DNA from: Mucilaginibacter aquariorum
GTDB lineage: Bacteria > Bacteroidota > Bacteroidia > Sphingobacteriales > Sphingobacteriaceae
DNA length: 64,000 nucleotides
NCBI RefSeq assembly: GCF_024498135.1
Contig: NZ_JANHOH010000001.1
Location: 2,356,001-2,420,000, forward strand
Reading direction: 5' to 3'
Shown here piece after piece: positions 51,192-64,000 of the stretch (within the stretch, counting starts at the first letter, position 1; each line of letters opens with the position of its first letter). A program made the position numbers and the translations under genes. The notes below the pieces were generated by a model. That model made no database searches. It saw nothing but the letters and a program-made list of their open reading frames with translations, and was not told where the DNA came from.

Positions 51192-52121
51192 ATGGAATTT
51201 TTTGGATCGCTTAAAAACTTTTGCAGGCTGCACAATTGGGATGCCCCTGATGTTTCAGGTTTACCGTTCCCGCAGAATATCGCAAAAGTAATGGCCGAGT
51301 TATCGGGAAGAAACTTCAATGGCGCAGCCTGTATGCTTTTACAGGATAAGGGCAAGCCCGCCAAACTGGCGACCGTCAAAACTTTTGACACACAATACCG
51401 CCTGTACTATATACCTGTGCGCCCCTTTTGGAAAATGAAAAACAACCCGAAGCAGCAGGCGCAATACCATTTGACAAGGGCGGTTTTTTCCTACCTGTAC
51501 AATACTGTGGATATTCCCTATTTCCGTGAACCCTGCTATTTGGACAACACCTATGATGCGCTTGAAAACTGGATAGCAGAAGTTGCAGGGGAAGAAATTG
51601 AAGACGATGAGGACAAAGCGTTTCGGCAAAGGCAGTTCAATGATTTTAAGGTCATGCAAAAAGCGGGAGATGCTTTACTACCTGAAATAAAACAGGCAGT
51701 AAGTTTGACCGACTGGCAACAGCTATTGGAAGAATTTAAAGCACAGGATAAATGGGAAAGCAGTTTTTGCGAGGTAGTTACCGAAATCTATAAACTGGCA
51801 GTTGATTATCCCCAAAGAAATATCAGGACTTCGATGCACTACGACCTTGTGGAAACCGATGGCGGGGACATGATCTATTGGGAAAATTACCTCTCCTTTT
51901 ACTGGAGTGGTGAGGACAGCCTGAACGAAATGCTGTTTGACATGGTGAACAGTGAACTACAGGAAATGGGTTACCAGGAAGAACCGATGGCCATTCAGTG
52001 GTACGATACCACGGTGGAAAAAGTACACTATGATTTTGATTTTGAAACGAGGCTGTTTTGGTTGCTTAACGAACTGACAGCCCTGCTAAACGATATGGAT
52101 TATGAAGAACCTGACAAATAA
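51192..52121 (+). CDS. PRTRC system protein F-like
   Basis: The 309-residue protein begins MEFFGSLKNFCRLHNWDAPD and contains YRLYYIPVRPFWKMKNNPKQ, YLYNTVDIPYFREPCYLDNT and YDLVETDGGDMIYWENYL. The order in the cassette (after protein C, before B) fits PRTRC protein F. An upstream frame is open to 50955 but overlaps the small gene at 50959; the true start may be a little before 51192, as SFHALPFTDFNRSE reads as coding. Confidence 0.75.
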   Translation: MEFFGSLKNFCRLHNWDAPDVSGLPFPQNIAKVMAELSGRNFNGAACMLLQDKGKPAKLATVKTFDTQYRLYYIPVRPFWKMKNNPKQQAQYHLTRAVFSYLYNTVDIPYFREPCYLDNTYDALENWIAEVAGEEIEDDEDKAFRQRQFNDFKVMQKAGDALLPEIKQAVSLTDWQQLLEEFKAQDKWESSFCEVVTEIYKLAVDYPQRNIRTSMHYDLVETDGGDMIYWENYLSFYWSGEDSLNEMLFDMVNSELQEMGYQEEPMAIQWYDTTVEKVHYDFDFETRLFWLLNELTALLNDMDYEEPDK

Positions 52122-52827
52122 TTTCAGCAGCAGCTACCAGCCTGTGAAAGCCCTGCTGATTTACAACAAACAAACGGAGGAAGCGGAACATAACAGCATC
52201 TACGTGGAAAGTTACGACATCGGAAAATTTGGTAACCCGATTAACGCACACCCCCTGACCGTGAAAGAAACACTGGCATTGAGCGGGATATTCCAAACGG
52301 CACAGGAACTCAAAACAGGTTTCCTGCGCTGCAAAGGGTTAATGCCCAATAAGGTGCTATATGTCAATCCCGAAAAGGGCGGTTATGCGGTTTGGTACAC
52401 ACCACCACGGGAGGTGCCATTGTTCTTTTCGGGCAGCCTCGGCATCAAATCAGGCAGGGGAAAAGTTCCTGCAATGATTTGGAGGGCGGACAGGGAAAGC
52501 CTCGCCATTTATGCAATGAAATGCAACCGAAAACCTATGGAAAAAACCATCCTTTACCATGCCCCGTTTTTTAATATCTATTGCGATGGGAAAGTGTGCA
52601 TGGGTAATGTGCGCATTGACATCGGGCAGGAAACCCGTTTGGAGGATTTTATGGAGCAATGGGAAAAATATTTTTGGAACAGCTATTTCAGCCATTTGAT
52701 GAACGACCATAACCCCGTAACCGAAAATATTGTCCAAATATGGAAAACCCAAATAAGCAGCGACAGGGCTTTTCCCTGCCAAGTGCTGAAACCGACAAGA
52801 TACACCCTTAAAAACCTGTTTGTATGA
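52102..52827 (+). CDS. PRTRC system protein B
   Basis: The 241-residue protein has NAHPLTVKETLALSGIFQTA, LYVNPEKGGYAVWYTPPREV and FFSGSLGIKSGRGKVPAMIW, typical of PRTRC protein B. It overlaps the previous gene by 20 bases and the ThiF gene by ATGA (52824-52827), so the set is translated as one unit. Confidence 0.9.
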   Translation: MKNLTNNFSSSYQPVKALLIYNKQTEEAEHNSIYVESYDIGKFGNPINAHPLTVKETLALSGIFQTAQELKTGFLRCKGLMPNKVLYVNPEKGGYAVWYTPPREVPLFFSGSLGIKSGRGKVPAMIWRADRESLAIYAMKCNRKPMEKTILYHAPFFNIYCDGKVCMGNVRIDIGQETRLEDFMEQWEKYFWNSYFSHLMNDHNPVTENIVQIWKTQISSDRAFPCQVLKPTRYTLKNLFV

Positions 52828-53648
52828 AAACCAAGAAACTGAAAGCGGTAAAACCCGCTGCGCATATCGCAGCAAAAACCTTACTAACGCCTTATAACCC
52901 GATTATCGTAAACCTGATTGGTGCAGGGGGAACTGGCAGCCAGTTCCTGACCGCATTGGCAAGGATGAACCATGCGCTGATTGCGCTAAACCATCCGGGC
53001 CTCATGGTGCGGGTGTTTGATGACGATACGGTAGAACCCGCCAACTTAGGAAGGCAGCTTTTTACCTCGGCAGAAATCGGGCAGAATAAGGCCGTGGCGT
53101 TGATAAACCGCATTAACCTGTTTTTCGGCACGAACTGGAAAGCCGTACCTGAAAAATATACAGAGGAAACGCTGAAAACTCAACCCGATTACTGGCTTGC
53201 TGAACTGACCATATCCTGCGTCGATACCGTTGCCGCTCGTTTTGAGATTGCGGAAATATTGACCAAACTTTATAAAAGCAGGATGCACGCCCATCACCAT
53301 CCCTTATACTGGATGGATTTTGGCAATAGCAAAGAAACAGGGCAGGTAATCCTTTCCACCGTTTCAGAAGTTTCGCAGCCCGAATCAAAAAAGTTTGCGC
53401 TTAAAGGCAGGCTGCCGATGGTGACCGAGGAATTTAAGGAACTACTGGAAAACTCCGAAGCTAATGACAACACTCCAAGCTGTTCTTTGGCCGAAGCCCT
53501 GACCAAACAGGATTTATTTATTAATTCGACACTCGCCAATTTAGGGGCATCATTATTATGGCAGCTATTCAGGGAAGGCATATTATTGAACAGGGGATTT
53601 TTTCTCAACCTCAGAGATTTCAGGACAATACCACTCAAGGTGGCCTAA
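52824..53648 (+). CDS. PRTRC ThiF family (E1-like) protein
   Basis: The 274-residue protein has the ThiF/E1 nucleotide site VNLIGAGGTGSQFLTALARM, VRVFDDDTVEPANLGRQLF, and a SCVDTVAARFEIAE segment. The catalytic-cysteine area is not as in canonical E1. The protein adenylates a carboxyl end or binds ATP in other systems. No JAB-type PRTRC A protein and no ParB-type protein lie in this window. Confidence 0.92.
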   Translation: MKTKKLKAVKPAAHIAAKTLLTPYNPIIVNLIGAGGTGSQFLTALARMNHALIALNHPGLMVRVFDDDTVEPANLGRQLFTSAEIGQNKAVALINRINLFFGTNWKAVPEKYTEETLKTQPDYWLAELTISCVDTVAARFEIAEILTKLYKSRMHAHHHPLYWMDFGNSKETGQVILSTVSEVSQPESKKFALKGRLPMVTEEFKELLENSEANDNTPSCSLAEALTKQDLFINSTLANLGASLLWQLFREGILLNRGFFLNLRDFRTIPLKVA

Positions 53649-53658
53649 TCAGCAGCCC

Positions 53659-53859
53659 ATGAAAATTAAAGATTTAGACGGAAAAGAAATAGCAGTGGCG
53701 GATTTGGCTTTGGCGCTAATGCAGGCTGATGATTACCGGCATTACAGGCTGAGCAATCCGTCCCCGCACCAATTGTATTTATATAAATATTGGGAAGATA
53801 TTTATCAAAAACTATTATCATTGAACTGCGAAAAACAACAGGGAAAGAAACAGGCATGA
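53659..53859 (+). CDS. Small protein of unknown function
   Basis: The 66-residue protein has IKDLDGKEIAVADLALALMQ and YLYKYWEDIYQKLLSLNCEK. Its stop overlaps the macro-domain start by ATGA (53856-53859). It has no known family but is translated with the macro-domain gene. Confidence 0.7.
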   Translation: MKIKDLDGKEIAVADLALALMQADDYRHYRLSNPSPHQLYLYKYWEDIYQKLLSLNCEKQQGKKQA

Positions 53860-54323
53860 TACGGTACACCACAGGCAATATAATGGATTCAAGCGCAGAG
53901 GCATTGGTCAATACCGTCAACACGGTCGGCGTTATGGGAAAAGGGATTGCCCTGCAATTCAAACAAACCTTTCCCCATAACTTTGATGTTTACAAACAAA
54001 CCTGCCAAAGCGGTCAATTCACTACAGGCAAAATACTAGCAGTAAAGGATAGCGACCTGCTTTTAGGTGAAAGACTTATTATTAACCTGCCGACAAAACA
54101 ACACTGGAAAATGCCCTCTACTTATGAATATGTGGAAAGCGGGCTAATCGCTTTACTGGCGTATCTTAAAGAAAACCCTATAAAAAGCTTGGCTATGCCT
54201 GCATTGGGCTGTGGAAACGGTGGTTTGGATTGGTTAAAGGTAAAGCCAATGATCGAGCGCCATTTGAGCGAACCCGATATGGCCATATGGGTTTATGAAC
54301 CTCAAAAGAAAGGGGCGGTCTGA
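53856..54323 (+). CDS. Macro-domain protein (DarG-like)
   Basis: The 155-residue protein has MIRYTTGNIMDSSAEALVNT and NTVGVMGKGIALQFKQTF, plus ALGCGNGGLDWLKVKPMI: an ADP-ribose-binding macro domain of the DarG/ADP-ribosyl hydrolase type. The C-terminal DarG extension and a DarT toxin partner are absent, so it is a stand-alone macro protein on the element. Overlaps with both neighbours (ATGA and TGATG) show operon expression. Confidence 0.92.
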   Translation: MIRYTTGNIMDSSAEALVNTVNTVGVMGKGIALQFKQTFPHNFDVYKQTCQSGQFTTGKILAVKDSDLLLGERLIINLPTKQHWKMPSTYEYVESGLIALLAYLKENPIKSLAMPALGCGNGGLDWLKVKPMIERHLSEPDMAIWVYEPQKKGAV

Positions 54324-54685
54324 TGGAAATCTTCCGGTTAATTATAGCAGGTGGCAGGGATTTTTCAGATTACCAGTTACTACAAAAAAAGGCCGATGTC
54401 ATGTTATCGTCCAAACGCTTTTCTCACACCATAGAGATCGTATCGGGTAAGGCTAAGGGAGCCGATACGTTGGGAGAGCAATATGCTAAAGCCAACGGCT
54501 TTGCAGTCAAAGAATTTCCCGCTGATTGGCAAATTGGAAAATCAGCAGGTTACGTCCGCAATTCGGAAATGGCGACCTATGCCGATGCGTGTATATGTTT
54601 TTGGAACGGTAAATCCAAAGGGACTAAACACATGATAGATTTAGCAACTGCGAAAGGCATCCCCTTACGTGTAATTCACTATTGA
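54323..54685 (+). CDS. DUF2493 (SLOG-like) protein
   Basis: The 120-residue protein has LIIAGGRDFSDYQLLQKKAD, IVSGKAKGADTLGEQYAKAN, GYVRNSEMATYADACICFWN and KGTKHMIDLATAKG, the DUF2493/YspA-like SLOG pattern of nucleotide-ligand-binding proteins. Last gene in the PRTRC unit; it starts within the macro-domain stop codon. Confidence 0.92.
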   Translation: MEIFRLIIAGGRDFSDYQLLQKKADVMLSSKRFSHTIEIVSGKAKGADTLGEQYAKANGFAVKEFPADWQIGKSAGYVRNSEMATYADACICFWNGKSKGTKHMIDLATAKGIPLRVIHY

Positions 54686-55623: not shown

Positions 55624-55641
55624 GATCAACGAATGCTAAAT

Positions 55642-55661
55642 GCAGCCCCGAAAGGGGCTTT
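55642..55661 (+). terminator. Short hairpin directly before ligD
   Basis: AGCCCC-GAAA-GGGGCT followed by TTT (55644-55661). It lies in front of the ligD start and speaks for the ATG at 55669 rather than one at 55633. Confidence 0.45.
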
Positions 55662-55668
55662 GCTGTCT

Positions 55669-58329
55669 ATGGCGGAATTGGAACAATACAAAGCTAAGCG
55701 GAATTTTAAAAAGACCGCGGAACCTGCCGGAGGACAACCGGGTACGGATAAGCTGTTGTTTGTCGTTCAAAAGCATGACGCCTCCCATTTACATTACGAT
55801 TTCCGCCTGGAGGTTAAAGGCGTTCTGAAAAGCTGGGCTGTGCCTCGGGGGCCTTCCATGGACCCCGAAGAGCGGCGTTTGGCCATGCCTGTCGAAGATC
55901 ATCCCTATGATTACAAGGATTTTGAAGGCATTATTCCTCAAGGCCAGTACGGCGGCGGTACAGTGATCGTCTGGGATGAGGGATGGTACGAACCTGCAGT
56001 AGATGATAAGTTAAAAGATAAAGCAGCCAAAGAACATTGGATGATGTCCAATTATTACAAGAACGCCCTGAAGATCACGCTGCACGGCCATAAACTCAAG
56101 GGCGATTTTATCCTCATCAAATTTAAAGAAGACAAATACGAAGGCGGCTGGCGGCTCATCAAAGCAGATGACCGGTACGCCACAAAAGAAGATATCCTGA
56201 AAAAAGACAAATCCGTCAAATCCAAACTGACCATCGAACAGATGGCCGAAAAGGAAGGCGCTGAGATCTGGAACAGCAGCCGCGAACAAAAGGTGGCCAC
56301 CAAAGACAAGCCAGCGGAGCCGGAACCGCAAAGGAATATAAACGACCTCAAAAAGCAGGGCATCAAAAAAGCCATGCCCAAATCCGTCAAACCTATGCTT
56401 TGCACCCTGACCAAAGAGGTTGTGCCGGACGAAGGCTACCTCTATGAGGTAAAATGGGACGGCTACCGCATCATTTCCTACACCGAAAAGAAAAAGGTCC
56501 GCATGGATTCCCGAAGTGCGCTCGATTATACCAAAAAATACCCGCCGGTAGCCAAAGCCCTGAAGGAACTGGGCCATGATGCCGTATTGGACGGGGAAGT
56601 GGTCGTATTCAATGAGGACGGGAAACCCGATTTTGATGCGCTTCAAACCTTTAACGGTCATGAGACGCCCATCAATTATTGCGTATTCGATATCCTTTGG
56701 CTCGATGGCTACAGTTTAATGCACCTGGCATTAACTGAACGCAAAGCCATCCTGGAAGAACTCACCCGGGATAATGAGGTACTCCGCTTTAGTACGTCAT
56801 TCGACGACGGTGAAGCTTTGTACCAGCAGGCGCTCGACCTAGACCTGGAGGGCATCGTCGCGAAGCGTAAGGACAGTGAGTACGTTCCGGACGCCCGCGA
56901 CAACCGCTGGCTGAAAACGCCCACCCGCAAGCGGCAGGAATTTGTGATTGGCGGCTGGGCCGAATCCGATAAATCACGTGCCTTCCGCTCGCTTTTATTT
57001 GGCGCTTACAACGCCAACAGCGAATTCGAATGGATCGGCCGCTCGGGGGGCGGCTACAAACAAAGCGAAATGCCAGGCATCCTGGCCCAGTTACAAAACC
57101 TGGAGCGTGATAAATCGCCTTTTGTCAACAAAGTGCTGGACACCAAGGGCGCGAAGACGCATTGGGTCAAACCTGAGCTGGTGGCCAATTTTGAATTCGC
57201 TACCTGGACCAAGACCGGCCGCATCCGCAAACCCGCTACTTTCCTCGGCTTCCGTAAGGACAAAAAAGCCGATCAGGTTGTAAGAGAAGTGCCGCTCAGC
57301 GATGCGCAGGAAGAAGCGATCAAAGCGGATGAACCAGCAGCAATTGAAATAACCCAATCAAAGGCAACAACAACCGATGCGGACAGCAACTGGCCGAAGA
57401 TCGAAGGTAAAAAGATCAATTCCGAACGGGAGTTTGAATTTGCCGGCCAGACGGTCACCATGAATAATATCGGGCAGGAACTCTGGCGCGGCATCACCAA
57501 GGCCCGGCTGATCACCTATTACCACCAGATCTCCGCTTATATCCTGCCGCACCTGAAGGATCGCCCACTATCCCTGCACATCAAGCAGGACGGTGCCAAC
57601 GCCCCCGGCTTTTATATCAAAGACATGGATGGCAGGCAGCCCGATTACCTCGATATATTCAGCGATCAGCGACGGCATAAAAAGAGAGGCAAACGCGACC
57701 GGATCGATTATGCCGTCTGCAATAACGAAGCCGCGCTCCTCTATCTCATCAATTTGGGCAATATCGACCTGAACCCCTGGAGCTCAACTATCAATAACCC
57801 ACTGGAGCCGGACTTTATCAGCATTGATCTCGATCCGTCCGATGGAGACTTCGGCAAGGCCATCAAAACGGCGCAGGCAGCTAAAAAGATATTCGACCAG
57901 TCCAAGCTGCAAAGCGTGGTCAAAACCTCCGGTAAAACCGGCATGCACCTGTTCCTGCCTTGCCAGGGTTTTAATTACCCTCAGGCAAGGACATTAGCTG
58001 AAAAACTCTGCGACAAGATCGCACAACAAATACCTGATATCGCCACGACCGAGGTCACCATCAGCCATCGGGGCGAAAAACTCTTCGTCGATCCCAGTCA
58101 GAATGATTACGCCGATACGCTAGCTGCTTCTTATTCTGTCCGACCCTACAAGCATCCGACCGTTTCCACCCCGCTGAACTGGAAAGAGGTGAAAGACAAC
58201 TTAGATCCCGGCAAATTTACCATGGATAGCCTGCCGGAGCGCCTGGAAAAAAAAGGCGATCTTTTTGAAAACCTGCGAAATGTAAAATGGCGCAGTTCCA
58301 ATTCGAAGATTTTAAAGGGCTTATTATGA
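55669..58329 (+). CDS. ligD: DNA ligase D (phosphoesterase, ligase, polymerase)
   Basis: The 886-residue protein has a 3'-phosphoesterase (FVVQKHDASHLHYDFRLEVK; YDYKDFEGIIPQGQYGGGTV), an ATP-dependent ligase (nucleotidyl lysine K262 in YEVKWDGYR; DGEVVVFN; GIVAKRKDSEY) and a primase-polymerase (catalytic DxD at D720/D722 in SIDLDPSDGDF; SVVKTSGKTGMHLFL; SVRPYKHPTVSTPLNW). It repairs double-strand breaks with Ku. The polymerase RxPDGxxG motif is changed to IKQDGANAPGFY, but the catalytic aspartates stay. Confidence 0.97.
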   Translation: MAELEQYKAKRNFKKTAEPAGGQPGTDKLLFVVQKHDASHLHYDFRLEVKGVLKSWAVPRGPSMDPEERRLAMPVEDHPYDYKDFEGIIPQGQYGGGTVIVWDEGWYEPAVDDKLKDKAAKEHWMMSNYYKNALKITLHGHKLKGDFILIKFKEDKYEGGWRLIKADDRYATKEDILKKDKSVKSKLTIEQMAEKEGAEIWNSSREQKVATKDKPAEPEPQRNINDLKKQGIKKAMPKSVKPMLCTLTKEVVPDEGYLYEVKWDGYRIISYTEKKKVRMDSRSALDYTKKYPPVAKALKELGHDAVLDGEVVVFNEDGKPDFDALQTFNGHETPINYCVFDILWLDGYSLMHLALTERKAILEELTRDNEVLRFSTSFDDGEALYQQALDLDLEGIVAKRKDSEYVPDARDNRWLKTPTRKRQEFVIGGWAESDKSRAFRSLLFGAYNANSEFEWIGRSGGGYKQSEMPGILAQLQNLERDKSPFVNKVLDTKGAKTHWVKPELVANFEFATWTKTGRIRKPATFLGFRKDKKADQVVREVPLSDAQEEAIKADEPAAIEITQSKATTTDADSNWPKIEGKKINSEREFEFAGQTVTMNNIGQELWRGITKARLITYYHQISAYILPHLKDRPLSLHIKQDGANAPGFYIKDMDGRQPDYLDIFSDQRRHKKRGKRDRIDYAVCNNEAALLYLINLGNIDLNPWSSTINNPLEPDFISIDLDPSDGDFGKAIKTAQAAKKIFDQSKLQSVVKTSGKTGMHLFLPCQGFNYPQARTLAEKLCDKIAQQIPDIATTEVTISHRGEKLFVDPSQNDYADTLAASYSVRPYKHPTVSTPLNWKEVKDNLDPGKFTMDSLPERLEKKGDLFENLRNVKWRSSNSKILKGLL

Positions 58330-58577
58330 AAATTGGCGCCGAACTACTAAAGGTCTTAAACAAGACCTACGCGCCGGACGAATACGTCAGCCTAAAATTC
58401 GGACGAAATCATCTGGTTTTTAAAACCGATGAACACGGCCGTCCAGTGATGCTGTTTATTGGCCAGGCAGACGAGAATGGAAGGATCAAAGGTGAACGTT
58501 TTACCCGTAATATCTTAACTGACGCGCAAGGCAAGATCATTAAAGACCACTGGGATAATAAAGATAAGACGGCATGA
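58326..58577 (+). CDS. Small protein coupled to both ligases
   Basis: The 83-residue protein has MKIGAELLKVLNKTYAPDEY, GRNHLVFKTDEHGRPVMLFI and GERFTRNILTDAQGKIIKDH. Its start overlaps the ligD stop (ATGA 58326-58329) and its stop overlaps the next start (ATGA 58574-58577). This tight linkage suggests it works with the end-joining ligases. No family is known to me. Confidence 0.8.
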   Translation: MKIGAELLKVLNKTYAPDEYVSLKFGRNHLVFKTDEHGRPVMLFIGQADENGRIKGERFTRNILTDAQGKIIKDHWDNKDKTA

Positions 58578-61450
58578 AGATCGCGACTTACAATATTAAT
58601 AACATCAATACCCGGCTGGACGTATTACTGCGCTGGCTGGAAGAGGCCAATCCGGATATCGTTTGCCTGCAGGAACTCAAATGCGAGCGAAACAAATTTC
58701 CTGAACAAAAACTTAAAGAGGTGGGCTATAACGCAATCTGGAAAGGACAGAAAAGCTGGAACGGCGTCGCCATTCTCGCCAAAAGCGAGATCAAAGAACT
58801 GCAAGACGACCTGCCCGGCGAGGATGAGGAATTTACCCATAGCCGCTATATCGAAGCCTTTATCGACGGTATTGTGATCGCCTGCATTTATCTACCCAAC
58901 GGCAATCCCTGGCCCGGACCCAAGTTCGATTACAAATTACGCTGGTTTCAAAGGCTCGCCGATCATGCCCGCGACCTGGTGGCCAGGGAGCTGCCCGTTA
59001 TCCTGATCGGAGACTATAATGTCATGCCGACAGACCTGGACACGTACAAACCGGAAAAATATGTGAACAATGCTTTGTTCCGGCCGGAAATAAAAAAAGC
59101 CTACAGAGAACTGGTCGACCAGGGCTGGACCGACGCCGTCAGGACCTTATATCCCAATGAACCAATCTATACTTTCTGGGACTATATGCGTAATGCCTAC
59201 GAAAGGAATGCCGGTTTGCGGCTGGACCATTTCCTGCTCAATAAAGCGGTCGCCAAACGACTAAAAATGGCGGAGGTGGATAAGCACGTCCGTGGCTGGG
59301 AGCATGCGAGCGACCATGCGCCGGTTTGGATCGAACTGGCCGATAACAATCTCCCTGAAAAGAAAAATACCGAAAAGCCGGAACAGCAAGTACAACGCGA
59401 AACGCAAACAGCACAGCCAAAAGGAACCGGTGACTGGCAAACCTTATTAGCAGCCGCTCCCAAGGCAAATATGCCCGCCAAACCGCAACCCATGAAGGCG
59501 ACGCTGGTCCGCGAGCCTTTTGACGACCCCGGCTGGCTGTACGAGATCAAATGGGACGGGTACCGCGCGCTGGCCGTCGTCGAAAATAACCAAGCCGAAT
59601 TGATCTCCCGCAATAACATTTCCTTTGACCAGTTCCATCCCATAACGGACGCTTTAGGCAAATGGAATGCTAACACGATCATCGACGGCGAGATCGTCGT
59701 GCTTAATGCCGACGGCAAATCCGATTTCAGCGCCATTCAGAATTGGCAGCGGCGCAAGGATGGCCAATTGGTCTATAATGTTTTTGATATCCTCTGGTAT
59801 GAAGGCCGCGACCTCAGGGAATTACCCTTAACCGAACGCAAAGCCATTTTGGAGGCGGTACTGCCAGCAGACGAGACCATCAAATTAAGTAAAGCTTTTG
59901 ACGTGAACGGCATCGAGTTTTTCCAGGCGGCGGAAAAAGCCGGCATCGAAGGCATTATGGCGAAGAAAGCCGACAGCGCTTATACCGCCGGTGACCGTTC
60001 CAAAGAATGGCTCAAGGTTAAAGTAGAACGAAGGCAGGAAGTGGTCATTGGCGCTTTCACCCGGAATGCCGGGACTGAGAAGTTATTCAGCGCCCTGGCC
60101 ATCGGCGTTTACGAAAAGGGTGTCCTGCGATATATCGGCAAAGTCGGCACCGGCTGGTCCGAAAAAAAGCAAAAAGAAATGATGGCCCAGTTCGAGCCCC
60201 TCATTACAGAAGTCTGCCCCTTTGATGTGGAACCGGATGTCGATGAACCTTCGCAGTTCCGCCCGCGCCGGCTCGGCGCCAAGCCGTTCTGGCTCAAACC
60301 CGAACTGGTTTGCGAAGTGAATATTGCGGAGATCACCAGCGACGGCAAAGTGCGTCAGGCTTCTTTCAAGGGCATGCGAAGCGATAAGAACCCCAAGGAT
60401 GTCATTATCGAAGTTCCTGCCGATACAACCGCAACTGTAGCCAAAATGGATGAAACGTCTGAACTAATCATAACGAAAACTAACCGCAAAAAAGCCATGA
60501 ACAAAACGATCAAACCCGAAGCCAGTTTCCTGGACCCCGAGAAAGACAGCCAGACCGTCAAAGTCAATGGCTGCCCCTTAACGTTCAATCATCTCTCCAA
60601 AGTCTACTGGCCTGAGGATGGTATTACCAAGCGCGATATGTTCAACTATTATGACCAGGTTGCGGAGTATATGGTACCTTACCTTAAAGACCGCCCCATG
60701 TCGCTCAACCGTTTTCCGAACGGCATACACGGGCCAAGCTTTTACCAGAAAAATGTGAAGGATAAAGTGCCGGATTGTATGGCCACGATGCCGCATACGA
60801 ATGACAAAGGCGAGGAAAAAGAATATTTGGTCGCTACAAATAAGGCAAGCCTTTTATGGATGGTTTCACTGGGGTGCATTGAGATCAATCCATGGTTCAG
60901 CCGCGTGCAATCCCCAGGCAACCCGGATTTCTGTGTCATCGACCTTGACCCCGACAAGCAGCATTTCGACCAGGTGATCAGCGCCGCACAGGAAGTCAAA
61001 AGAGTGCTGGACACTATCGGCGTCACAGCCTATCCGAAAACGTCAGGTTCTACCGGTATGCACATTTACATTCCGCTTGGCGCAAAATATACATATGATC
61101 AGAGTCAGCTTTTTGCAAAGATCATTGTCAGCCTGGTGCATAAGCAAATACCGGAGTACACCAGCCTTGAACGAATGGTTAAAAATCGGGGCGGTAAAAT
61201 GTACCTCGACTTTTTACAAAATCGTCCCGATGCCACGATCGCCGGTGTCTATTCCCTGCGGCCCAAACCCGGCGCAACGGTTTCCATGCCGCTCACCTGG
61301 GACGAAGTAAAACCCGGACTGACAATGAAAGACTTTACCATACATAACGCCATCCAGCGGTTAAAAGAAACCGGTGACTTGTTCAAAGGCGTATTAGGCG
61401 AAGGAATAGACCTTATGGCAGTTATTCAAAAAGCACAAAGCGCATTTTAA
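58574..61450 (+). CDS. Fusion of ExoIII-like nuclease, ATP-dependent ligase and LigD polymerase
   Basis: The 958-residue protein starts with an EEP-type nuclease (MKIATYNINNINTRLDVLLR, QELKCERNKF, GDYNVMPTDLD, LRLDHFLLN, HASDHAPVW), with the residues needed by ExoIII/AP-endonucleases in place. A Gln/Pro-rich linker (about 260-300) follows. The ligase has K326 in YEIKWDGYR, DGEIVVLN and GIMAKKADSAY. The polymerase has DxD at D790/D792 (VIDLDPDKQHF), RFPNGIHGPSFYQK and SLRPKPGATVSMPLTW. In normal LigD the extra domain is a phosphoesterase; here a nuclease takes its place. Confidence 0.93.
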   Translation: MKIATYNINNINTRLDVLLRWLEEANPDIVCLQELKCERNKFPEQKLKEVGYNAIWKGQKSWNGVAILAKSEIKELQDDLPGEDEEFTHSRYIEAFIDGIVIACIYLPNGNPWPGPKFDYKLRWFQRLADHARDLVARELPVILIGDYNVMPTDLDTYKPEKYVNNALFRPEIKKAYRELVDQGWTDAVRTLYPNEPIYTFWDYMRNAYERNAGLRLDHFLLNKAVAKRLKMAEVDKHVRGWEHASDHAPVWIELADNNLPEKKNTEKPEQQVQRETQTAQPKGTGDWQTLLAAAPKANMPAKPQPMKATLVREPFDDPGWLYEIKWDGYRALAVVENNQAELISRNNISFDQFHPITDALGKWNANTIIDGEIVVLNADGKSDFSAIQNWQRRKDGQLVYNVFDILWYEGRDLRELPLTERKAILEAVLPADETIKLSKAFDVNGIEFFQAAEKAGIEGIMAKKADSAYTAGDRSKEWLKVKVERRQEVVIGAFTRNAGTEKLFSALAIGVYEKGVLRYIGKVGTGWSEKKQKEMMAQFEPLITEVCPFDVEPDVDEPSQFRPRRLGAKPFWLKPELVCEVNIAEITSDGKVRQASFKGMRSDKNPKDVIIEVPADTTATVAKMDETSELIITKTNRKKAMNKTIKPEASFLDPEKDSQTVKVNGCPLTFNHLSKVYWPEDGITKRDMFNYYDQVAEYMVPYLKDRPMSLNRFPNGIHGPSFYQKNVKDKVPDCMATMPHTNDKGEEKEYLVATNKASLLWMVSLGCIEINPWFSRVQSPGNPDFCVIDLDPDKQHFDQVISAAQEVKRVLDTIGVTAYPKTSGSTGMHIYIPLGAKYTYDQSQLFAKIIVSLVHKQIPEYTSLERMVKNRGGKMYLDFLQNRPDATIAGVYSLRPKPGATVSMPLTWDEVKPGLTMKDFTIHNAIQRLKETGDLFKGVLGEGIDLMAVIQKAQSAF

Positions 61451-61789: not shown

Positions 61790-62131
61790 TTACAGATCCG
61801 GTTCCTGGTAAGCTTCGATAAAAACCGCCAGATAAGCCTGCTCCGCAAGACTTAATACCTGACCTTCAAATTGCCTGAGGCAGCCACTCTCAAAAATAAA
61901 CTTGCCCAGATAGTCAGGGTTTTGCTCATCAGGTAACTCATCGTTTACCTCAGCGAATTCCTCCGGTTCCGTGAACAGATGCGTCTCGTCATCTAACGCG
62001 TCTTTGTATATTTTGTATACGCCGGTCGAACGCAAGCCGCGCTGACCATCCTTTTCAATTATTGGCTCAATAATTACATAGCGATCGCTGCCATCTGCCT
62101 GGGGGATGCTCGTTTGTACAGGGTTCATCAT
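61790..62131 (-). CDS. Small protein after Ku
   Basis: The 113-residue acidic protein has QADGSDRYVIIEPIIEKDGQ, LRSTGVYKIYKDALDDE and LAEQAYLAVFIEAYQEPDL. It starts at 62131, 1 base after Ku's stop. It may be a partner of the end-joining system. No known family. Confidence 0.7.
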   Translation of the reverse strand: MMNPVQTSIPQADGSDRYVIIEPIIEKDGQRGLRSTGVYKIYKDALDDETHLFTEPEEFAEVNDELPDEQNPDYLGKFIFESGCLRQFEGQVLSLAEQAYLAVFIEAYQEPDL

Positions 62132-62132
62132 A

Positions 62133-62903
62133 TCATGCCCCTTTCTTAGCATTTAAACTGCTCATCAGCTGATCGTAAAGATCGTCGCCTTTAGCTTTTA
62201 CCGGTTTAAGCTTTTTAATGGTCGGACGCTTACCTTTGGCTTTTTGCTCAATGATATTCATCAGCTCTGTATGAAATTCGTCCTTATATTTTGAAAGATC
62301 CAGCGGCTCTGCATACTGGTCAATCAGCGCAAGACCCATTTTTAGTTCTTTATCACTTACTTTAATGTTATCATCGAGCTTGAGTTCATCCTGTTCGCGT
62401 ATCTGCTGTGCAAAACGAATGCGGGTCACCACGATAGCTTTGTCAACGGGATGAACAATACAAAGACTTTCGGTACTCCGCAGGACAAAACGCGCGAGGC
62501 CTGCCTTGCCTGATTTCTTCAGCGCTGCCAGTAATAGCGCGTAAGCTTTGTTGTTTTTAGTAGCCGGTTCTGTATAATAAGATGTTTCATAATACATCGG
62601 GTTCACCGAAGCGACATCCACGAAACTTTCGATCTCAATGACTTTCGTTTTTTCCGGCGCGGCTGCTTCAAAATCGGCATCCTCTATAATTACATAGTCA
62701 TCATCGTATTTATAACCTTTAACGATCTTATCATAAGGCACTTCCTTTTTCGTGTTTTCATTGACCCGCTGGAATTTAATATGCGCGTGGTCGCGGCTGT
62801 CCAGCATGTCCAGGTCAAGTCTTGTTTCCTGCACCGCTGAGAATAATTTGATGGGGATGCTCACCAGGCCGAAACCGATGGAGCCTGTCCAGATACTTCT
62901 CAT
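62133..62903 (-). CDS. ku: Bacterial Ku protein
   Basis: The 256-residue protein has MRSIWTGSIGFGLVSIPIKL, KFQRVNENTKKEVPYDKIVK, GYKYDDDYVIIEDADFEAA and the Ku-core pattern YYETSYYTEPATKNNKAYAL, with a basic C-terminal tail KGKRPTIKKLKPVKAKG. Ku dimers bind DNA ends and recruit LigD. It overlaps the small gene upstream by ATGA (62900-62903). Confidence 0.97.
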   Translation of the reverse strand: MRSIWTGSIGFGLVSIPIKLFSAVQETRLDLDMLDSRDHAHIKFQRVNENTKKEVPYDKIVKGYKYDDDYVIIEDADFEAAAPEKTKVIEIESFVDVASVNPMYYETSYYTEPATKNNKAYALLLAALKKSGKAGLARFVLRSTESLCIVHPVDKAIVVTRIRFAQQIREQDELKLDDNIKVSDKELKMGLALIDQYAEPLDLSKYKDEFHTELMNIIEQKAKGKRPTIKKLKPVKAKGDDLYDQLMSSLNAKKGA

Positions 62904-63229: not shown

Positions 63230-64000
63230 TCAAAGGAGATTCTTTTCAATGTCGGCAATTGAAGGCAAACTATCTTTCAAATCTGTGGGAATGGCCTTTG
63301 TCAGATGGTATTCAGAAATTCCTATTGGTTTCTCCAGTCCTTTTAAAGCATACTCAGCTACAATCTTATTTTTCTCTTTGCATATCAGTATACCTATGGT
63401 CGGCTGGTCATGCTGATGCTTTAACATCCCGTCTACAGCATTTAAGTAGAAGTTTAACTTTCCTGCATATTCGGGAATGAACTTTCCGGCTTTCAGCTCT
63501 ATCACTACAAAGCATCTAAGCCTTAAATGATAGAATAAAAGATCAATATAATAATCTTCGCCTCCGATCTGTAACGGATATTGTCTGCCAACATAACTAA
63601 AACCATTGCCAAGTTCAAGGAGAAATTTCGTCATGTGGCCAACGAGGCCATCCTCCAATTCTCTTTCAAAATGATTTTCTGCCAAATTTAGAAAGTCAAA
63701 CTTATATGGGTCTTTAAAAATTTCTTTTGCAAGATCACTTTGTATTGGCGGAAGTGTAGCCGAAAAATTGGTCACCGCCTTTCCTTTTCTGCTGTACAGA
63801 TCGTTCTCTATCTGGTTTACCAATAGGTTCCGGCTCCAGCCAAATTGTACAGCTTGTTTAATATAAAAAATGCGTTCTTCCTTGTTTTTTACCTTATCCA
63901 GTAAAGTGATATGATGGTACCAGGGCAATTGTGCAAGTGGCACTTGCACAATTGCATCACTATTTTTAATTTGTGCAAGCGGCACTTGCACAAATTCAGG
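63230..64000 (-). CDS. DUF1016/YhcG-type PDDEXK nuclease (partial)
   Basis: The frame is open at the right edge. It has LLDKVKNKEERIFYIKQAVQ, FGWSRNLLVNQIENDLYSRK, and the PD-(D/E)XK core DYYIDLLFYHLRLRCFVVIE then LKAGKFIPEYAGKLNFYLN. The N-terminal domain lies partly outside. The two near-palindromes at 63926-63996 code for the repeated VQVPLAQ near the visible end. Members of DUF1016 may act in restriction or DNA repair. Confidence 0.9.
   Translation of the reverse strand, partial: PEFVQVPLAQIKNSDAIVQVPLAQLPWYHHITLLDKVKNKEERIFYIKQAVQFGWSRNLLVNQIENDLYSRKGKAVTNFSATLPPIQSDLAKEIFKDPYKFDFLNLAENHFERELEDGLVGHMTKFLLELGNGFSYVGRQYPLQIGGEDYYIDLLFYHLRLRCFVVIELKAGKFIPEYAGKLNFYLNAVDGMLKHQHDQPTIGILICKEKNKIVAEYALKGLEKPIGISEYHLTKAIPTDLKDSLPSIADIEKNLL
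63926..63996. repeat. Two 29-bp palindromes inside the DUF1016 gene
   Basis: CAATTGTGCAAGTG (63926-63939) has a perfect reverse complement at 63941-63954. A second near-copy spans 63968-63996 (AATTTGTGCAAGCG and its partner, one mismatch). The copies start 42 bases apart, are in frame, and repeat the peptide VQVPLAQ. Confidence 0.75.

What the first reader, a model, noticed from the sequence alone, without database searches (positions are those of the whole stretch)
58574..61450. End-joining ligase with an ExoIII-like nuclease in place of the phosphoesterase
An EEP nuclease with complete catalytic motifs, an ATP ligase and a LigD polymerase are in one chain, beside a classical LigD. This would allow abasic-site or 3'-end processing, gap filling and sealing in one enzyme. 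Both copies have intact catalytic lysines and aspartates, so they may divide tasks.
Basis: partly seen in the sequence, partly recalled or inferred. Interest (0 to 1): 0.65.

Follow-up and report, generated by a model that had tools for sequence, protein, structure and literature searches.

The report
DNA end-joining enzyme with swapped front domain
In a small group of soil bacteria, the enzyme that cleans, fills and seals broken DNA ends has exchanged its usual end-cleaning part for an unrelated one that elsewhere is a separate neighbouring gene; this may tie two repair pathways together in one protein, but no activity has yet been measured.

Summary
One unbroken 958-aa frame (58574-61450, +) joins an ExoIII/EEP nuclease (1-256), a LigD ligase (299-612) and a LigD polymerase (665-945). 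There is no LigD phosphoesterase (PE) domain. It is coupled by ATGA overlaps to an 83-aa gene and a classical PE-LIG-POL LigD; a Ku gene lies convergent to them. The architecture is real and maintained: whole or altered copies occur in 15 of 149 genomes of the genus and in Pedobacter, with catalytic residues kept and dN far below dS. The LIG-POL tree gives one origin, nested inside PE-LIG-POL enzymes. The sister LigDs lie near a stand-alone EEP gene (12 of 20 loci fetched), and those EEPs are sister to the fused ones. So a neighbouring xth-like gene replaced PE. On some sphingomonad plasmids a PE-less ligD overlaps an xth gene by 4 bp, the same pairing without fusion. The closest solved nuclease is NExo, a 3'-phosphatase lacking AP-endonuclease activity; the fused domain shares its Asn108. 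I infer 3'-end cleaning, then gap filling and sealing, in end joining and/or base excision repair. Abasic-site incision is doubtful. Activity is untested. New variant of LigD.

The parts
55633..58329 (+). classical LigD of a divergent class, PE-LIG-POL, 898 aa
   Evidence: 37% identical to the fused LIG-POL
58326..58577 (+). 83-aa gene of unknown function between the two LigDs; its ATG overlaps the ligD TGA and its TGA overlaps the fusion ATG (ATGA both times)
   Evidence: no Pfam match; homologues beside the fusion in M. gossypiicola (L009, L195) and M. pineti (L196)
58574..61450 (+). EEP-LIG-POL fusion, 958 aa
58574..59341 (+). EEP/ExoIII-like nuclease domain, residues 1-256
59342..59467 (+). 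variable linker, residues 257-298
   Evidence: poorly conserved; highest dN of the gene in 6 of 7 pairs
59468..60409 (+). ATP-dependent ligase domain, residues 299-612
   Evidence: missing in the M. pineti relative
60410..60565 (+). variable linker, residues 613-664
60566..61408 (+). LigD primase-polymerase domain, residues 665-945
61790..62152 (-). 120-aa gene downstream of Ku, unknown
62133..62903 (-). Ku, 256 aa, convergent with the fusion
   Evidence: one of 4 Ku genes in the genome
62900..63199 (-). 99-aa gene (family 'c3') that overlaps the Ku start; the same family precedes other accessory-type Ku genes

Best explanation
It is a LigD whose N-terminal phosphoesterase was replaced, once, in an ancestor of a Mucilaginibacter/Pedobacter lineage, by an ExoIII-family nuclease that had been an independent gene in the same kind of Ku/LigD locus. 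Mechanism, inferred: the EEP domain removes 3'-phosphates and similar 3' blocks (a NExo-like activity, perhaps with limited 3'-5' trimming), the POL domain fills the gap, and the LIG domain seals it. The enzyme would act at Ku-held breaks and/or at single-strand gaps left by Fpg/Nei-type glycosylases. The classical LigD made from the same operon would keep the PE chemistry. Shown here: the architecture, one LIG-POL clade, sister loci with a separate EEP gene, overlapping genes, purifying selection and conserved catalytic residues. Inferred: substrates, the order of steps, use of Ku, and the link to base excision repair.
For: Domains. Nearest solved relative is NExo (2jc4/6fk4, 198 bits for the domain), described as a 3'-phosphatase lacking AP-endonuclease activity (PMC6294502, passages). 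NExo's phosphatase-aiding Asn108 is kept in 47 of 48 close EEP rows, while the paralogue L113 of the same genome has Ser and Gly at 108 and 167. LIG-POL trees: all 20 fused rows used form one clade (SH-aLRT 99, 100) inside PE-LIG-POL enzymes; the fused group plus one PE-less protein joins an accessory PE-LIG-POL clade (97). EEP tree: fused EEPs are sister to the stand-alone EEPs of those accessory loci (100/98 and 98/90). A stand-alone EEP lies in 12 of 20 accessory LigD loci fetched (10 of 20 within 6 kb) against 0 of 70 other named LigD loci and 0 of 40 other Ku loci fetched from the family. An Fpg-like gene lies in 4 of those 20 loci. EEP and LIG-POL relatives lie in one place on 19 of 72,556 plasmid records; in 5 of 11 opened the LigD has no PE, and in three of those xth is annotated as overlapping it by 4 bp. 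The steps Fpg, then 3' processing by Xth, ExoIII or EndoIV, then Prim-Pol, then ligase were reconstituted with separate mycobacterial proteins (PMC5663958, passages). EEP-domain dN 0.045-0.131 with dS 0.48-2.47 or saturated in 7 pairs.
Against: No activity has been measured. Asn108 is not needed for 3'-phosphatase activity (E. coli ExoIII, a known 3'-phosphatase by recall, has Gln there), and Leu at the 167 position is uncharacterised as far as I read. One fused copy (Pedobacter aquatilis, L013) has Phe instead of Asn108. The same Asn/Leu pair is found in family-wide stand-alone EEPs with no NHEJ gene in the stretches fetched, so it is not an NHEJ signature. Eight of 20 accessory loci show no EEP. 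Two c3-type Ku loci of other genomes (L203, L204; L204 is at a contig end) have no EEP either. Fpg is near only 3 of 21 distinct fusion loci and Ku near 3 of 21 (flanks of varying length). Four stand-alone EEPs nest inside the fused EEP set, so the EEP tree alone does not show the fused rows as one clade. Several fused copies are split, shortened or broken (L015, L084, L092). The full-length AlphaFold model was poor (mean pLDDT 60) and was not used.
Confidence: 0.62

Rival explanations
1. The EEP domain is mainly an AP endonuclease (ExoIII/APE1-like), so the fusion is a one-chain short-patch repair enzyme for abasic sites: incision, filling, dRP removal by the ligase domain, sealing.
For: Member of the class II AP-endonuclease family with all eight catalytic residues. 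LigDs of B. subtilis and P. aeruginosa are reported to have dRP-lyase activity, and the Bacillus enzyme completes BER in vitro (PMC4770248, abstract and discussion). SRAP genes (abasic-site crosslinkers, role recalled) lie near 3 of 21 distinct fusion loci and are annotated in 2 opened sphingomonad plasmid loci.
Against: Closest solved relative is NExo, which lacks this activity; Asn at NExo 108 is shared with it, whereas paralogue L113 carries Ser and Gly and matches AP endonucleases better. The bulky Leu may crowd the AP-site pocket (inference).
Confidence: 0.2
2. The fusion is an accessory, partly redundant gene in decay. It persists beside a complete LigD and its nuclease adds little.
For: A split copy in M. 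conchicola, a ligase-less copy in M. pineti and a frame-broken copy in G121; patchy presence, 15 of 149 genus genomes.
Against: Purifying selection on all three domains; invariant catalytic residues at 61-86% identity to the window. The M. pineti loss removes LIG plus nearly all of both linkers in frame and leaves EEP-POL intact, which looks like remodelling rather than decay.
Confidence: 0.12
3. EEP does the job of PE fully, including trimming of 3'-ribonucleotides left by the polymerase, so the swap is functionally neutral.
For: PE is the only domain lost from the fusion, and PE-less LigD is paired with xth in five opened sphingomonad plasmid records.
Against: Many xth-linked LigDs still have PE: 6 of 11 opened plasmid records (one of them broken) and 18 of 20 accessory Mucilaginibacter LigDs in one frame. 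So EEP often adds to PE rather than replacing it.
Confidence: 0.15

Closest known systems
Bacterial LigD (PE-LIG-POL), TIGR02776 / PF21686 + PF01068 + PF04679
   Same: LIG and POL domains in the order seen in the Bacteroidota LigDs examined here; catalytic residues; here also close to a Ku gene
   Different: no PE domain (PF13298); an EEP nuclease at the N terminus instead
NExo of Neisseria meningitidis (PDB 2jc4, 6fk4, 6fk5)
   Same: same EEP family by sequence, all eight catalytic residues, Asn at position 108
   Different: NExo is a free-standing protein; Leu replaces His167; here the domain is fused to ligase and polymerase
Bacillus-type two-domain LigD (LIG-POL) working with AP endonucleases
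   Same: LigD without PE that can complete base excision repair in vitro (PMC4770248)
   Different: the nucleases (Nfo, ExoA) are separate proteins there
Mycobacterial LigC / Prim-PolC excision-repair complex (PMC5663958)
   Same: the functional sequence Fpg, 3' processing by Xth/ExoIII/EndoIV, Prim-Pol gap fill, ATP ligase; Fpg in an operon with LigC and Prim-PolC in some mycobacteria
   Different: separate proteins held by interactions; LigC type; Prim-PolC did not bind Ku in that study
xth-ligD gene pairs on sphingomonad, Dyadobacter and Mycetohabitans plasmids (this work)
   Same: the same activities encoded side by side; PE absent from LigD in five opened sphingomonad records
   Different: not fused; sphingomonad and Dyadobacter order is ligD then xth, Mycetohabitans xth then ligD

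Membership tests
LigD (NHEJ ligase D) | ATP-dependent ligase domain with KxDG motif and C-terminal part | tested here: met
LigD (NHEJ ligase D) | LigD-type primase-polymerase domain with DxD and third Asp | tested here: met
   nests inside LigD in trees
LigD (NHEJ ligase D) | N-terminal 3'-phosphoesterase domain (LigD_N) of the three-domain form | tested here: not met
   no LigD_N in the fusion, so it is not a conventional three-domain LigD; two-domain LigDs without PE are accepted members (PMC7719229, passages)
LigD (NHEJ ligase D) | works with Ku at double-strand breaks | not testable with these tools
   Ku gene about 0.7 kb away and convergent; a Ku gene is in the fetched flanks of 3 of 21 distinct fusion loci
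ExoIII/Xth (EEP superfamily) | full-length Exo_endo_phos domain above curated cut-offs with N7, E34, Y105, D146, N148, D217, D246, H247 (NExo numbering) | tested here: met
NExo-type 3'-phosphatase | Asn108 and His167 | tested here: inconclusive
   Asn kept, His replaced by Leu
NExo-type 3'-phosphatase | 3'-phosphatase activity without AP-endonuclease activity | not testable with these tools
   needs purified enzyme

The most novel reading that the evidence does not exclude
ExoIII-family nucleases are a second, recurrent end-processing partner of LigD. In at least two phyla (Bacteroidota, Pseudomonadota) an xth gene has joined LigD, sometimes with Ku, an Fpg-like glycosylase or SOS-type polymerases and sometimes on plasmids, forming a hybrid of base excision repair and end joining. 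In Sphingobacteriaceae this culminated in one polypeptide that takes a 3'-blocked gap or break to a sealed strand without PE. Descendants (EEP-POL in M. pineti, EEP-LIG plus POL in M. conchicola) show that the modules can be re-cut.
Probability: 0.4. Interest if true: 0.68.

Novelty: new variant of a known kind. Interest (0 to 1): 0.55.

Why it matters
The PE domain is part of conventional LigD, yet some LigDs lack it, and what cleans their 3' ends is not settled (my judgement). Here a natural swap of PE for an unrelated nuclease, with sister loci showing the unfused state, names a candidate answer and a clean test: does EEP do what PE does? It may also join base excision repair and end joining physically, a link that in the papers I read rests on in vitro mixtures, protein interactions and mutant phenotypes. 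The single chain is small enough to purify and assay directly.

Tried and rejected
Missed frameshift or chimeric assembly: rejected; full-length copies occur in ten other genomes of the genus and in named Mucilaginibacter and Pedobacter records.

EEP drawn from the family-wide stand-alone xth genes: rejected; the fused EEP is sister to the NHEJ-island EEPs, not to the family-wide copy (L109) or the AP-endonuclease-like copy (L113).

Several independent fusions: not supported; one LIG-POL clade. In the EEP tree four stand-alone EEPs (L114, L117, L118, L126) nest inside the fused set. I read them as later release from the fusion, but the nesting is only moderately supported except for L114 with L089, and tblastn found no LIG or POL remnants in those loci.

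Phage or viral origin: rejected; the viral scan returned 7 relatives, all matching the ligase part only, and 0 of 71 phage records with a match cover 80% of the query. Anti-phage defence: no PADLOC hit for the fusion, the classical LigD or Ku.

Ku-EEP linkage as a general rule of the family: rejected; 0 of 40 other Ku loci fetched. It belongs to the accessory type.

Structure prediction of the full chain gave mean pLDDT 60 and was set aside; no fold search was made. In one search MAFFT placed ExoIII's NExo-167 column inside an insertion and printed Leu there; by the motif SFLPEE I read it as Ser, by eye.

Counts and what was left out. The 18 accessory loci L243-L260 were picked by hand rows whose match began near residue 259-279, not all such rows; L261 and L262, fetched in the same call as other LigDs, had no EEP. 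The 40 Ku loci are mostly the best-scoring rows, which found Ku in 108 of 151 genomes. Flanks differ (about 6 kb named, 7 kb Ku, 8 kb accessory) and some are cut by contig ends. One search used 62 LIG-POL rows, one search used 133; both give SH-aLRT only. Match lists were cut by the tool, and large searches scored only the top 2-5 candidates per genome. 11 of 19 plasmid records were opened.
Full report
WHAT IS THERE. Window 58574-61450 (+) is one 958-aa frame. Residues 1-256 are an ExoIII/EEP nuclease (TIGR00195, 242 bits, cut-off 183; Pfam Exo_endo_phos 5.9e-29), 299-612 an ATP-dependent LigD ligase and 665-945 a LigD primase-polymerase; the PE domain LigD_N gives no hit. Upstream, 55633-58329 is a classical PE-LIG-POL LigD of a divergent class (37% identity to the fused LIG-POL). 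Between them lies an 83-aa gene. The LigD stop (TGA 58327-58329) overlaps its ATG (58326), and its stop (TGA 58575-58577) overlaps the fusion's ATG (58574): two ATGA overlaps, so the three genes are very probably one translationally coupled operon (coupling inferred). Ku (62133-62903, -) and a 99-aa gene of family c3 that overlaps its start face the fusion. The genome has 4 Ku genes and 4 PE domains. Besides the fusion it holds three PE-LIG-POL LigDs in one frame, a fourth whose PE is split off, a LIG + POL gene pair, a lone POL and four stand-alone EEP genes.

IS IT REAL AND KEPT. Full-length copies occur in 11 of 149 genomes of the genus, this one included; four more hold a broken, split, contig-cut or ligase-less copy. 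In a family sample 6 of 151 genomes carry it, one of them broken; in a phylum sample 2 of 296, both of the window's genus. These match lists were cut by the tool, so degraded copies may be missed. A named-genome scan gave 79 loci, 9 of them fusions or their split or shortened forms, all in records named Mucilaginibacter or Pedobacter (domain scan). The G172 contig has the length of an M. gossypiicola record, so I take the window's genus to be Mucilaginibacter (inference). Across 18 fusions (61-86% identity to the window) the catalytic residues of all three domains are invariant. In 7 pairs of relatives EEP dN is 0.045-0.131 with dS 0.48-2.47 or saturated; the linkers change much faster.

WHERE IT CAME FROM. 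In a tree of 133 LIG-POL rows rooted on divergent LigDs and a focused tree of 62 rows with a mixture model, all 20 fused rows are one clade (SH-aLRT 99 and 100) inside PE-LIG-POL enzymes. A PE-less LIG-POL protein (G131, 702 aa) stands next to them (98 and 95). This group joins (97) a clade of 20 accessory LigDs plus L098. Those accessory LigDs sit in islands. In the window's own genome, locus L107 reads c3, Ku, a YtxH-like gene, stand-alone EEP, Fpg-like glycosylase, then a convergent LigD; L108 reads c3, Ku, YtxH-like, EEP, a 309-aa inserted gene, a fragment of an Fpg-like gene, then a convergent LigD. Of the 20 accessory loci fetched, 12 hold a stand-alone EEP (10 within 6 kb of LigD), 8 hold Ku and 4 an Fpg-like gene. 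Controls: 0 of 70 named non-fusion LigD loci hold an EEP gene, and 0 of 40 other Ku loci from the family hold EEP or Fpg. Two of those 40 (L203, L204) are also c3-type, which speaks against a strict rule. The EEP tree mirrors the LIG-POL tree: a clade of 35 (100/100) splits into 10 stand-alone EEPs, 9 of them within 6 kb of NHEJ genes (100/98), and 25 rows that are 21 fused plus 4 stand-alone (98/90). So EEP and LigD shared a kind of locus before they fused, and the fusion replaced PE. In Mucilaginibacter sp. NORP305, c3, Ku and Fpg face an EEP-LIG-POL fusion, with no EEP on the Ku side.

LATER RE-CUTTING. M. pineti carries EEP-POL of 581 aa: LIG and nearly all of both linkers are absent and the frame is intact, near a classical PE-LIG-POL LigD. 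M. conchicola has EEP-LIG and POL as two adjacent frames. G121 is broken within POL. Each rests on a single assembly as far as I know.

THE SAME PAIRING ELSEWHERE. In plasmids, 19 of 72,556 records hold EEP and LIG-POL relatives in one place: one Dyadobacter, twelve sphingomonad records under nine names, one Ancylobacter and five Mycetohabitans. I opened 11 and saw no fusion in them. In five sphingomonad records LigD lacks PE (624-678 aa); xth overlaps it by 4 bp in three, while in L265 and L282 the xth frame looks shortened or shifted. In the other six LigD has PE, though in L280 it is broken, and in L266 and L280 the xth frame is broken too. Two Bacteroidota genomes outside the family, noticed in the list, also have EEP by LigD and Ku (L275, L276). 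The sphingomonad records may be one lineage, so I do not count them as five events.

WHAT IT LIKELY DOES. The best solved match to the EEP domain is NExo of Neisseria (198 bits), then an Archaeoglobus enzyme (178 bits). NExo is reported to be a strong 3'-phosphatase without AP-endonuclease activity; N108S lowers the phosphatase, S112N gives some to NApe, and H167G gives NExo weak AP incision (PMC6294502, passages read). All 48 EEP rows of the close group keep the eight catalytic residues; 47 of 48 have Asn at 108 and all 48 Leu at 167. The genome's other xth gene, L113, has Ser and Gly and scores higher against AP endonucleases such as NApe and APE1 than against NExo. I therefore favour removal of 3'-phosphates and related 3' blocks and doubt abasic-site incision. 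Limits: ExoIII has Gln at 108, so Asn is not required; I saw no test of Leu at 167; the same residues occur in EEPs with no NHEJ gene in the stretch fetched.

PATHWAY. Bifunctional Fpg leaves a gap with a 3'-phosphate. PMC5663958 (passages) reports a mycobacterial reaction in which Fpg, then XthA, ExoIII or EndoIV, then Prim-PolC, then LigC1 repair 8-oxoguanine, and an operon of Fpg with LigC and Prim-PolC in some species. PMC4770248 (abstract and discussion) reports dRP-lyase activity of LigD and in vitro repair of uracil-containing DNA. The fusion would have the last three activities in one chain; an Fpg-like gene lies near 3 of 21 distinct fusion loci and 4 of 20 accessory loci. A C-family DNA polymerase gene lies near 6 of 21 fusion loci, with a Y-family polymerase beside it in four, and an SRAP-like gene near 3 (Pfam run on one representative each). 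SRAP and ImuA genes also follow two sphingomonad pairs. I infer roles in end joining and in repair of oxidative gaps, without knowing which dominates.

LITERATURE. LigD/EEP/polymerase domain/ligase domain and LigD with Exo_endo_phos found 0 papers. Mucilaginibacter/DNA ligase D/exodeoxyribonuclease III listed 2, domain-architecture terms 20 of 30, LigD/NHEJ/exodeoxyribonuclease/operon 25 of 63; some searches listed 1, 6 and 13. In those titles and abstract openings I saw no description of this fusion. PMC7719229 (passages) mentions 20 additional domains in Ku and LigD proteins in a supplement that I could not open, so the fusion may be listed there. Many journals are not held.

VERDICT. A real, conserved domain swap in LigD, of one origin by the LIG-POL trees, with an unfused parallel in another phylum: a new variant of a known kind. 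The architecture and origin are well supported; the chemistry is a testable inference.

Noticed in passing
52102-53648 (+): Prok-E2 family D gene followed by a ThiF/E1-like gene, a ubiquitin-conjugation-like pair upstream of the NHEJ genes (PRTRC-like by recall).
   Followed up: no
53790-54685 (+): Macro-domain protein overlapping a YspA/SLOG-family protein by one base, possibly a nucleotide-sensing pair.
   Followed up: no
63230-64000 (-): YhcG-type PDDEXK nuclease (DUF1016) with strong matches to PADLOC candidate PDC-S02; the frame runs off the window end, so the N-terminal part lies outside or is missing.
   Followed up: partly
L107 and L108 (own genome): Two more Ku islands with c3 gene, Ku, YtxH-like gene, EEP, Fpg-like gene or fragment, and LigD; in L107 the PE domain is split from LIG-POL by a frame break.
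   Followed up: yes
58326-58577: 83-aa gene without Pfam match, found between the two LigDs in three species.
   Followed up: no
L191, L193, L201, L122: Y-family polymerase and a 980-aa DnaE-type polymerase with PHP domain near the fusion, an SOS-mutagenesis-like cassette.
   Followed up: partly
L278, L282 (sphingomonad plasmids): ligD-xth pair followed by a cupin gene, two SRAP-type genes, DUF1810 and ImuA.
   Followed up: no
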